The position numbers and the translations under genes are program-made. A stretch of 64,000 bases of DNA, taken from positions 1 to 64,000 of the forward strand of contig DXIQ01000063.1 in assembly GCA_019112785.1 (NCBI GenBank), read 5' to 3'. Origin of the DNA: Candidatus Blautia stercorigallinarum (lineage in GTDB: Bacteria; Bacillota; Clostridia; Lachnospirales; Lachnospiraceae). A model generated the notes under the pieces. The model saw only the letters and a program-made list of their open reading frames with translations, was not told where the DNA came from and searched no databases. Positions within the stretch are counted from its first letter, which is position 1. Each line of letters opens with the position of its first letter. Shown here in pieces: positions 15,620-18,274 of the stretch.

Positions 15620-18274
15620 ATGGAAAACAAGAAAAAATCAGAATTTAACAAAGTGTTCAGTGCCTGGGATATCCTGGTGATCGCATTTGGCGCCATGATC
15701 GGATGGGGCTGGGTAGTATCTACCGGCGATTGGATCCAGACAGGCGGCGTGATCGGCGCGATCCTCGGGTTTGTGATCGGCGGCATTATGATCTTCTTCG
15801 TGGGTCTTACTTACGCAGAACTTACGGCGGCTCTTCCCCAGTGCGGCGGAGAGCATGTCTTCAGCTACCGTGCCATGGGGCCTATCGGCTCTTATATCTG
15901 TACATGGGCGATCGTGCTGGGGTATGTCAGTGTTGTATGTTTTGAGGCATGTGCCCTTCCAACCATCATTACGTATATTTATCCGGATTTCCTCCAGGGA
16001 TATCTCTATACAGTGGCAGGATTTGATATTTATGCATCCTGGGTTGCTGTGGCAGTGATCGTGGCGATCTTTATTACTTATATTAATATAAAAGGTGCAA
16101 AGACCGCAGCCATTCTGCAGACGGTCCTGACAGTTATTATCGGAGTAGTAGGAATCCTCCTGGTGGTGGCTTCTCTGTTCAGCGGGGATATGTCAAATAT
16201 GGAGAATCAGCTTTTTGTAGGAGATACTACCGGGACTATGGCACGGAACGTATTCGGAGTGGCAGCTCTGACGCCTTTCTTCTTCATCGGCTTTGACGTA
16301 ATCCCTCAGGCGGCGGAAGAGATCAGCGTTCCCCTGAAAAAAATCGGCGGTATCATGATCCTTTCCATCCTCCTGGCGGTTGCCTTCTATGGTCTTGTGA
16401 TCTTCGGCGTAGGCTATGTAATGAGCCCTTCAGATATCGCCGCCTCTCAGGCAGGCACAGGACTGGTGACAGCAGATGCCATGGCAAAGGCTTTCGGCAG
16501 CGAGATGATGTCCAGAGTACTGATCATCGGCGGAATGTGCGGGATCATTACCAGCTGGAACTCCTTCCTCATCGGCGGAAGCCGTGCTATGTACTCTATG
16601 GCAGAATCCTATATGATCCCCAAGGTATTTGCCACCCTTCACAAAAAGTATAAAACCCCTACCGTTGCTCTTTATCTCATCGGAGCCTTATCCGTGCTCG
16701 CGCCTTTCTTCGGAAGACAGATGCTTGTATGGGTGGTGGACGCAGGTAACTTCGGATGCTGTCTTGCATACTGTATGGTGGCGCTTTCCTTCATTATCCT
16801 GAGATCAAAAGAGCCGGAGCTGAAAAGACCTTATAAGGTAAAGCATTATAAGATCGTAGGTGTGATCGCTGTGATCATGTCCGGATTTATGGTAGCCATG
16901 TATATCATTCCCAATTCCGGATGTTCCCTGCTACCTCAGGAATGGGTAATGGTCGGCGGCTGGTCTTTACTTGGCGTTGTATTTTTCATTATCTGTAAAC
17001 TGAAATATAAAGAAAAATTTGCTACTCTGGTAGATATTGTTGATGAGAGTGAACTTGAAGAAAAGAAAGAGGAAGAAAGGGCTGTGGCAGCGGCTGTATC
17101 TATTGCCAAAAGTAAAGAGGCAGCAGCTGAAGCTGAGAAAAAGACCGTCTTTTCTTATTATCTTCCGGTAAATATAGAGTTTGGATGCGGCAAAGTGGAT
17201 CAGGCCGGCAGTTTCGCAAAACCATACGGAAAGAAGGCACTGATCGTTACAGGACGCAACAGCGCAAAAAAGTCCGGGCTCTATGACCGGGTAGCAGCCA
17301 GTCTGGATGCAGCGGGAATAAGCCATCTGCTCTTTGATAAGGTAACTCAGAATCCGCTTACCACTACGGCAGAGGAAGGCGCGGCTTATGCTAAGGAACA
17401 TGGATGTGACATGATCCTTGCTATCGGCGGAGGAAGCGTTATGGACTGCGGAAAAGCCATTGCATTTTTGGCTGTAAATCCGGGAAATATTAACGACTAT
17501 ATCTTCAACCGTCTGTCAAGTAATACGGCACTGCCTATTATTTTAATCCCGACCACCTGCGGAACCGGTTCAGAAGGAAACGGCTTTGCGGTGCTTACCA
17601 ATCCGGAAAACGGAGACAAGAAATCTCTTCGTTGCAATGCCATTGTGGCTAAGGTGTCCATTGTGGATCCGGAATGTATGATGACCATGCCGAAAAAGGT
17701 ACTGGCCTCTGTGGGCTTCGACGCCTTGTGTCATTGTATGGAAGCTTATACGTCAAGGACCGCCCAGCCCTTTACAGATGCGCTCTGTGAATACGCCATG
17801 AATCTGATCGCAAAAAATCTGGTAAAGGTTTACCGGGGCGAAGGAGATAAAAGAGCCTGGGAGAAACTGACCCTTGCCAGCACTATCGGCGGTATGGTGA
17901 TCAATACAGCAGGAGTTACCCTGGCTCACGGGATGGAACATCCCGCAAGCGGACTCAAAGACATTGTTCATGGACAGGGCCTGGCAGCCCTTACGCCGGC
18001 AGTGATCGAGGCCTCTCAGAAAGGAGATCATTTTAAATACGCTAAGATCGCCAGGATCTTTGGAGGAATTACTGCGGAAGACTGCGCGCCTGCTATCCGT
18101 ATGCTTCTTAAAGACCTGGATCTTACCTGTACCCTGTCTGATCTGGGGCTGGAAGAGAAAGACATTCCCTGGATGGCGAAGAACTGTATGAAAGTTTCCG
18201 CAGCAGGCGTGGCTAATAATCCGGTAGTATTTACCGAGGAACAGATCGCTGAGATCTATCGCGCCGCAATGTAG
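15620..18274 (+). CDS. Fusion protein: APC-family amino acid permease (N-terminal) and iron-containing alcohol dehydrogenase (C-terminal)
   Basis: Residues 1 to about 470 are a multi-TM APC permease; ADH from about nt 17149 with GGGSVMDCGKAI, GTGSEGNGFAVLTN, GFDALCHCMEAYTS, LAHGMEHPASGLKDIVHGQGLA (D/H/H/H metal ligands retained). Confidence 0.92.
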   Translation: MENKKKSEFNKVFSAWDILVIAFGAMIGWGWVVSTGDWIQTGGVIGAILGFVIGGIMIFFVGLTYAELTAALPQCGGEHVFSYRAMGPIGSYICTWAIVLGYVSVVCFEACALPTIITYIYPDFLQGYLYTVAGFDIYASWVAVAVIVAIFITYINIKGAKTAAILQTVLTVIIGVVGILLVVASLFSGDMSNMENQLFVGDTTGTMARNVFGVAALTPFFFIGFDVIPQAAEEISVPLKKIGGIMILSILLAVAFYGLVIFGVGYVMSPSDIAASQAGTGLVTADAMAKAFGSEMMSRVLIIGGMCGIITSWNSFLIGGSRAMYSMAESYMIPKVFATLHKKYKTPTVALYLIGALSVLAPFFGRQMLVWVVDAGNFGCCLAYCMVALSFIILRSKEPELKRPYKVKHYKIVGVIAVIMSGFMVAMYIIPNSGCSLLPQEWVMVGGWSLLGVVFFIICKLKYKEKFATLVDIVDESELEEKKEEERAVAAAVSIAKSKEAAAEAEKKTVFSYYLPVNIEFGCGKVDQAGSFAKPYGKKALIVTGRNSAKKSGLYDRVAASLDAAGISHLLFDKVTQNPLTTTAEEGAAYAKEHGCDMILAIGGGSVMDCGKAIAFLAVNPGNINDYIFNRLSSNTALPIILIPTTCGTGSEGNGFAVLTNPENGDKKSLRCNAIVAKVSIVDPECMMTMPKKVLASVGFDALCHCMEAYTSRTAQPFTDALCEYAMNLIAKNLVKVYRGEGDKRAWEKLTLASTIGGMVINTAGVTLAHGMEHPASGLKDIVHGQGLAALTPAVIEASQKGDHFKYAKIARIFGGITAEDCAPAIRMLLKDLDLTCTLSDLGLEEKDIPWMAKNCMKVSAAGVANNPVVFTEEQIAEIYRAAM

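What the first reader, a model, noticed from the sequence alone, without database searches (positions are those of the whole stretch)
15620..18274. Single ORF fusing an amino-acid permease to an intact iron-dependent alcohol dehydrogenase
Seen: one 884-aa frame with a roughly 12-TM APC permease, a charged linker (ELEEKKEEERAVAAAVSIAKSKEAAAEAEKK), then a complete group III (Fe) ADH. The NAD site GGGSVMDCGKA and all four expected metal ligands (D and H in GFDALCHCMEAY, H in LAHGMEHP, H in VHGQG) are present. There is no in-frame Met close to the ADH start, so it is not an obvious stop-loss of two genes. Established: the two families are normally separate polypeptides, and APC C-termini are cytosolic. 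Inference: with two class III aminotransferases next door (one GabT-like), uptake, transamination to a semialdehyde and reduction to a hydroxy acid (e.g. GABA to 4-hydroxybutyrate, or a beta-alanine/5-aminovalerate equivalent) may be physically coupled at the membrane to contain a reactive aldehyde.
Basis: partly seen in the sequence, partly recalled or inferred. Interest (0 to 1): 0.82.

Follow-up and report, generated by a model that had tools for sequence, protein, structure and literature searches.

The report
Amino-acid permease fused to alcohol dehydrogenase
Many gut bacteria make one protein that is both a membrane importer for an amino acid and, on its inner tail, an enzyme that turns a reactive aldehyde into an alcohol; its conserved neighbours suggest that it takes up GABA-like amino acids, keeps their nitrogen and leaves a hydroxy acid such as 4-hydroxybutyrate.

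Summary
The 884-aa frame at 15620-18274 is real: a 12-helix APC permease (1-470), a disordered linker (~476-514) and a complete Fe-ADH (516-884) with all metal ligands. It is no artefact. At least 119 of the best 120 database hits, at 74-99% identity, carry the same permease+ADH architecture, which NCBI already names 'bifunctional amino acid transporter/iron-containing alcohol dehydrogenase'. It occurs across Lachnospiraceae, other Clostridia and Bifidobacteriaceae. Both domains are under purifying selection. Relatives that keep the genes apart, in the same order, show the precursor state; 9 of 25 fused proteins keep the old ADH start Met.

The conserved operon is GabT-like aminotransferase (AT1), ArgD-like aminotransferase (AT2), kinase-like PF13189 protein, permease-ADH. 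AT and ADH travel together even without the permease; the kinase-like gene travels with the permease, and in two genomes is fused to it instead. Non-orthologous 4-hydroxybutyrate-dehydrogenase-type enzymes replace the ADH in related operons. AT1 orthologues sit in an agmatine-putrescine-GABA-4-hydroxybutyrate operon.

Most likely: uptake of an omega-amino acid (GABA best), transamination to the semialdehyde, reduction by the membrane-tethered ADH, and nitrogen gain with the hydroxy acid as end product. Substrate, channelling and localisation are inferred. Observation confirmed; interpretation partly supported.

The parts
15620..18274 (+). Fused gene, 884 aa: APC amino-acid permease + linker + iron-dependent alcohol dehydrogenase
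15620..17029 (+). Permease part, residues 1-470 (12 membrane helices in the model)
   Evidence: Pfam PF13520/PF00324; model
17045..17161 (+). Disordered charged linker, residues ~476-514 (fast evolving; fused relatives often keep a relic start Met at its end, the window does not)
   Evidence: pLDDT < 50; dN/dS; relic Met
17165..18271 (+). Complete Fe-ADH part, residues 516-884; NAD loop GGGSVMDCGK, metal ligands D701 H705 H770 H784
15003..15599 (+). Cytidylate-kinase-like protein (PF13189), 20 bp upstream of the fusion; P-loop lacks the usual Lys-Ser/Thr; found beside nearly every related permease, fused to it in two other genomes
13672..14958 (+). Class III aminotransferase AT2, ArgD-like but a paralogue of the genome's biosynthetic argD (homologues start at the internal ATG of MRLKDTGL)
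11497..12849 (+). Class III aminotransferase AT1, GabT-like (TIGR00700 501.4 bits against cut-off 506.65)
12929..13483 (+). XRE-cupin regulator between the two aminotransferases
10023..11336 (-). PucR-family regulator, divergent from the operon

Best explanation
The protein is a true, conserved transporter-enzyme fusion that works in deamination of an imported omega-amino acid, GABA being the best candidate. The APC permease brings the amine in. The neighbouring class III aminotransferases pass its amino group to 2-oxoglutarate, giving glutamate and a semialdehyde (for GABA: succinate semialdehyde). The NAD(H)-dependent Fe-ADH, tethered to the cytosolic tail of the permease by a flexible linker, reduces the aldehyde to the omega-hydroxy acid (4-hydroxybutyrate), which is probably released. 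With glutamate recycled by glutamate dehydrogenase the net reaction is amine + water -> hydroxy acid + ammonium, redox-neutral, and so suited to nitrogen scavenging by a fermenter. The fusion keeps the aldehyde-removing enzyme at the membrane and in 1:1 ratio with the uptake protein. Shown here: architecture, conservation, operon, AT-ADH and permease-kinase linkage, replacement of the ADH by 4-hydroxybutyrate-dehydrogenase-type enzymes. Inferred: substrate identity, direction of the ADH, release of the product, benefit of tethering.
For: Fusion conserved in at least 119 of the 120 best hits, in 28 fused loci collected from named species and genome bins and in 14-15 of 397 family genomes. Both domains under purifying selection; metal ligands invariant. 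AT1 or AT2 beside 23 of 28 fused loci (several misses are short contigs) and beside 10 of 13 operons with the ADH but no permease, so AT and ADH look like consecutive steps. G011 and G421 have AT1, permease::kinase and a 4Hbd-type ADH; G225 has a 4Hbd-type ADH beside AT1 with 544 bits to PDB 30SM 'Cvir-Hbd2'. That ADH family lies within about 5 kb of an HpaB-family dehydratase in six genomes, in those examined with a CoA-transferase and/or acylating aldehyde dehydrogenase, i.e. 4-hydroxybutyryl-CoA clusters. In G547 an operon holds agmatine deiminase and N-carbamoylputrescine amidase (above equivalog cut-offs), putrescine aminotransferase (above cut-off), an aldehyde dehydrogenase, a PF13189 protein, the 4Hbd-type ADH and an AT1 64% identical to the window's. 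The window's genome has no glutamate decarboxylase or AguB match and no putrescine-AT above cut-off, so the amine should come from outside, and no HpaB-family protein, so the hydroxy acid should not enter the crotonyl-CoA route.
Against: AT1 falls just short of the GabT equivalog cut-off (501.4 of 506.65 bits) and no ADH equivalog model reaches its cut-off. Some operons carry only AT2, whose substrate is unknown, so the permease may carry another omega-amino acid (5-aminovalerate, beta-alanine) or a diamine. The genome is 91% complete, so absences are weak. No transport, enzyme or localisation data exist. The permease could not be assigned to a substrate by sequence.
Confidence: 0.6

Rival explanations
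1. Same module, other substrate: 5-aminovalerate (to 5-hydroxyvalerate), beta-alanine (to 3-hydroxypropionate) or a diamine such as putrescine or ornithine, with AT2 as the main aminotransferase.
For: AT2-only operons with the fused protein exist (L040, L048, L050, L053, L058, L095). AT2 is ArgD-like and a paralogue of the biosynthetic ArgD. In G192 the operon follows N-carbamoylputrescine amidase and an aldehyde dehydrogenase. 5-Aminovalerate to 5-hydroxyvalerate is a known anaerobic route (PMC8473912).
Against: 4Hbd-type enzymes and AT1 in GABA-route operons point to C4 chemistry.
Confidence: 0.3
2. The permease is a precursor/product exchanger: amine in, hydroxy acid out. The fused ADH is the last enzyme, so the fusion hands the product to the export site.
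For: It explains why the last and not the first enzyme is fused. Several APC-superfamily transporters are known exchangers (GadC, AdiC; from general knowledge). No dedicated exporter is conserved in the operon.
Against: Best profile and PDB matches are to TIGR00909 and GkApcT-like transporters, with only a weak match to the exchanger TyrP. No test of transport mode was possible.
Confidence: 0.2
3. The fusion has no functional coupling of its own: it is a neutral joining of two adjacent co-transcribed genes that is tolerated and inherited.
For: Split operons with the same order work without it; in split loci the ADH coding region begins about 50-150 bp after the aligned end of the permease. 9 of 25 fused proteins retain the relic ADH start Met. 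One genome has re-split by a TGA, and free ADHs are nested among fused ones. The linker is unconserved.
Against: Fused state kept across many genera and passed to Bifidobacteriaceae. The permease tail was also fused to its other partner (PF13189) in two genomes.
Confidence: 0.3
4. Taurine nitrogen assimilation: taurine to sulfoacetaldehyde to isethionate, with the ADH a TauF-type sulfoacetaldehyde reductase.
For: Same logic of class III aminotransferase plus M-ADH in gut anaerobes (PMC6616044).
Against: The TauF ligand Gln196 is replaced by His705 in 37 of 37 sequences; TauF (6JKO) is only a mid-rank match (145 bits against 203 for the best).
Confidence: 0.05
5. Assembly artefact or frameshift that joins two genes.
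For: Only that the window is from a draft genome (111 contigs).
Against: Same fusion in many independent assemblies, including isolates (Hespellia stercorisuis, Pseudoscardovia suis, Oliverpabstia, Anaerostipes sp.).
Confidence: 0.01

Closest known systems
NCBI architecture 'bifunctional amino acid transporter/iron-containing alcohol dehydrogenase'
   Same: Identical domain order and length; the window protein is a member.
   Different: Only a computed name; no substrate, pathway or partner was attached to it in any source found.
Taurine nitrogen-assimilation module Toa + TauF (Bifidobacterium kashiwanohense, PMC6616044)
   Same: Class III aminotransferase plus metal-dependent ADH turning an amine into an excreted alcohol.
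   Different: TauF is not fused to a transporter; its Gln196 ligand is His here; different ADH subfamily.
GABA / 5-aminovalerate fermentation enzymes of Clostridium aminobutyricum, C. kluyveri-type 4Hbd and C. viride
   Same: Transamination then NAD-dependent reduction to the omega-hydroxy acid.
   Different: Those continue through 4-hydroxybutyryl-CoA dehydratase; the window's genome has no HpaB-family protein, and its ADH is a different Fe-ADH subfamily (about 24-29% identity to 4Hbd-type enzymes).
Transporter-enzyme fusions such as SulP-carbonic anhydrase (general knowledge, not re-tested)
   Same: Cytosolic enzyme on the C-terminus of a secondary transporter.
   Different: In SulP-CA the enzyme acts on the transported species itself; here an aminotransferase step lies between.

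Membership tests
APC-superfamily amino-acid permease | Pfam AA_permease_2 / AA_permease above gathering, 12 TM helices | tested here: met
   130.7 and 112.4 bits; 12 helices counted in the model
APC-superfamily amino-acid permease | Transport of an amino acid | not testable with these tools
   No transport assay; no equivalog cut-off met
Iron-dependent (group III) alcohol dehydrogenase | PF00465 + PF25137, D-x3-H ... H-x13-H metal ligands, NAD loop | tested here: met
NCBI 'bifunctional amino acid transporter/iron-containing alcohol dehydrogenase' | Both domains complete in one polypeptide of about 880 aa | tested here: met
4-hydroxybutyrate dehydrogenase (curated model NF058672) | Score above curated cut-off | tested here: not met
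   179.6 bits against 500
4-hydroxybutyrate dehydrogenase (any family) | Reduces succinate semialdehyde | not testable with these tools
   Only functional replacement by 4Hbd-type enzymes in related operons
TauF sulfoacetaldehyde reductase | Gln at the second metal-ligand position (Q196) | tested here: not met
   His705 in 37 of 37; criterion from PMC6616044
AT1 as GABA transaminase (TIGR00700) | Equivalog cut-off 506.65 bits | tested here: not met
   501.4 bits; orthologues lie in a GABA-route operon
AT2 as acetylornithine transaminase of arginine synthesis (ArgD) | Subfamily score and place in the arg cluster | tested here: not met
   TIGR00707 met (434 against 410), but another ArgD (489 bits) sits with ArgC, ArgJ and ArgG on contig C76
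Cytidylate kinase | Walker A GxxGxGK[ST] | tested here: not met
   GCEYGSGGPDIG and similar; no GK[ST] in any homologue aligned

The most novel reading that the evidence does not exclude
A membrane metabolon in gut Firmicutes: a permease whose cytosolic tail is the docking or fusion point for both a kinase-like regulator (PF13189) and an aldehyde reductase, importing GABA and releasing 4-hydroxybutyrate (GHB), possibly by exchange. This would be a widespread, redox-neutral drain of gut GABA into another neuroactive compound.
Probability: 0.25. Interest if true: 0.78.

Novelty: new variant of a known kind. Interest (0 to 1): 0.56.

Why it matters
Secondary transporters fused to a metabolic enzyme are rare. 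This one is conserved across genera, has natural split relatives as controls, and an alternative fusion (permease::PF13189) that links the little-understood PF13189 family to a transporter. It makes testable whether gut Lachnospiraceae convert GABA or 5-aminovalerate to hydroxy acids (4-hydroxybutyrate is GHB), and whether tethering a downstream enzyme to a permease gives a benefit.

Tried and rejected
Stop-loss or assembly artefact: rejected by conservation. Taurine/TauF route: ligand test failed. Arginine synthesis for AT2: a separate ArgD lies in the arg cluster. Onward fermentation through 4-hydroxybutyryl-CoA dehydratase: no HpaB-family protein in the genome. Internal synthesis of the amine: no glutamate decarboxylase or AguB match and no putrescine-AT above cut-off. 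Internal start for a separate ADH: no ATG in the window's linker, no conserved SD pattern. One origin of the fusion: neither shown nor rejected (2 changes in the careful tree, AU p about 0.5). P0061 (kinase + permease + ADH in one frame): shares a 71-aa permease deletion with P0002 and looks like a deletion chimera; not counted. Literature searches for the fusion or for PF13189 with aminotransferases found nothing relevant. No Rfam element in 9000-22000.

Full report
Observation. The frame 15620-18274 encodes 884 aa without a stop. Pfam finds AA_permease_2 at 13-436, Fe-ADH at 516-684 and ADH_Fe_C at 696-884, all far above gathering. The model from a 42-sequence alignment has two confident domains and a disordered linker (476-489 and 491-514 below pLDDT 50; pTM 0.56, so the mutual orientation is not fixed). 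The ADH half superposes on solved Fe-ADHs (TM-score about 0.9 by target length), and D701, H705, H770 and H784 are invariant. An even number of membrane helices puts the ADH on the same side as the N-terminus, the cytosol in APC proteins (established knowledge).

It is conserved. At least 119 of the 120 best hits among 5.8 billion proteins, at 74-99% identity, carry the same permease+ADH architecture (one more is a shorter chimera-like frame); several carry NCBI's name 'bifunctional amino acid transporter/iron-containing alcohol dehydrogenase'. Named carriers include Candidatus Blautia avicola, Ca. Blautia stercoripullorum, Ca. Mediterraneibacter norwichensis, Hespellia stercorisuis, Oliverpabstia intestinalis, Anaerostipes sp., Clostridium sp. 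MSJ-8, Epulopiscium sp. and Pseudoscardovia suis of the Bifidobacteriaceae. In 397 genomes drawn from the window's family 44 have a strong relative, and about 14-15 have the uninterrupted fusion. dN/dS is 0.015-0.08 in both domains and higher in the linker. Stop-loss in one strain and assembly error are excluded.

Origin. Thirteen collected loci have permease and ADH as separate adjacent genes in the same order, the ADH coding region beginning about 50-150 bp after the aligned end of the permease. Standalone ADHs of split operons typically start M-x-F-x-Y-x-L-P-V-N, and 9 of 25 fused proteins keep a Met at exactly that place; the window has lost it. So the fusion arose by in-frame joining of neighbours. 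The permease tree needs two to three changes of state; one origin is neither shown nor rejected. In the ADH tree some free ADHs nest among fused ones, which suggests later release. In G009, nested among fused copies, a TGA directly followed by ATG interrupts the last membrane helix: a secondary break or a sequencing error.

Operon and linkage. The order AT1 - (XRE-cupin) - AT2 - PF13189 - permease-ADH recurs. Two linkages separate cleanly. The ADH goes with an aminotransferase: 10 of 13 operons that have the ADH but no permease carry AT1 or AT2. The PF13189 gene goes with the permease: 48 of 49 loci with the permease (the exception has 142 bp of upstream sequence), 0 of 13 without it (Fisher p about 2e-12, but the loci are related and not independent). 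G125 has PF13189 and permease next to each other with neither AT nor ADH; a more distant permease of G024 stands without it. In G011 and G421 the permease is fused to PF13189 instead of to ADH (706 and 709 aa). The permease tail has thus been joined to each of its two neighbours in different lineages.

Chemistry. Fe-ADHs of other subfamilies occupy the ADH role in related operons: ErcA/lactaldehyde-reductase-like ones in L057 and L098-L100, and 4Hbd-type ones in G011, G421 and G225. G225's enzyme beside AT1 has 544 bits to PDB 30SM 'Cvir-Hbd2'. Across the order this 4Hbd type lies within about 5 kb of an HpaB-family dehydratase in six genomes, in those examined with a CoA-transferase and/or acylating aldehyde dehydrogenase, the 4-hydroxybutyryl-CoA set. 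In G547 the 4Hbd-type gene stands next to an AT1 64% identical to the window's, a PF13189 gene, an aldehyde dehydrogenase, a putrescine aminotransferase, agmatine deiminase and N-carbamoylputrescine amidase, the last three above equivalog cut-offs. AT1 is therefore most probably a GABA transaminase, although it misses the GabT cut-off by 5 bits. AT2 scores as ArgD subfamily but is a paralogue: the genome's other ArgD sits with ArgC, ArgJ and ArgG.

In the window's own genome no HpaB-family protein, glutamate decarboxylase or N-carbamoylputrescine amidase was found, and no putrescine aminotransferase above cut-off (genome 91% complete). Hence the amine should be imported and the hydroxy acid should be an end product. 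Mechanism proposed: import, transamination to glutamate plus semialdehyde, reduction by tethered ADH, release. Net: amine + H2O -> hydroxy acid + NH4+, redox-neutral if glutamate is re-oxidised, or an electron sink if glutamate is assimilated. This parallels the taurine-isethionate route (PMC6616044), but the ADH is not TauF: Gln196 is His here.

What is inferred. Substrate identity (GABA favoured over 5-aminovalerate, beta-alanine, diamines), direction, release, and the benefit of the tether. Because the ADH is the second enzyme, simple hand-over of the transported molecule is not an explanation; co-localised aldehyde removal, fixed stoichiometry, or hand-over of the product to an exchanger are. 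A neutral fusion remains possible. The PF13189 partner lacks the usual P-loop Lys-Ser/Thr in all homologues aligned, so a regulatory nucleotide-binding role is as likely as kinase activity.

Novelty. The architecture is already named in databases. The operon logic, the alternative permease::PF13189 fusion, the split precursors with relic start Met, and the link to GABA-route operons were not found described in the library searched. I rate it a new variant of a known kind.

Noticed in passing
window 15003-15599; L021 7663-9783; L094 5151-7280; L101 3573-5881: PF13189 'cytidylate kinase-like' gene tracks the permease and in two genomes is fused to its C-terminus; its P-loop lacks Lys-Ser/Thr. 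A function for this widespread family may be transporter regulation.
   Followed up: partly
L004 2812-2814 (G009): TGA immediately followed by ATG inside the last membrane helix of an otherwise intact permease-ADH gene in a single-contig genome.
   Followed up: partly
L123 6482-15517 (G547): Apparent complete agmatine - putrescine - GABA - 4-hydroxybutyrate operon with a PF13189 gene and a 4Hbd-type dehydrogenase.
   Followed up: partly
P0002 and P0061: Two metagenomic relatives share the same 71-aa in-frame deletion in the permease; P0061 also joins part of PF13189 to the permease-ADH.
   Followed up: no
window 37720-39957: Lacto-N-biose/galacto-N-biose phosphorylase; alpha-galactosidase (24015-26231) and a raffinose-synthase-like protein (32617-34719) elsewhere in the window.
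   Followed up: no
window 56589-58382: Arylsulfotransferase (ASST), a sulfate transfer enzyme of interest in gut bacteria.
   Followed up: no
window 48799-50760: RnfC-like/Nuo51 protein with methylene-THF-reductase C-terminal domain, typical of acetogens.
   Followed up: no
window 6598-8979: Phosphoketolase (XFP) gene upstream of the operon, next to an FGGY sugar kinase (4683-6161).
   Followed up: no
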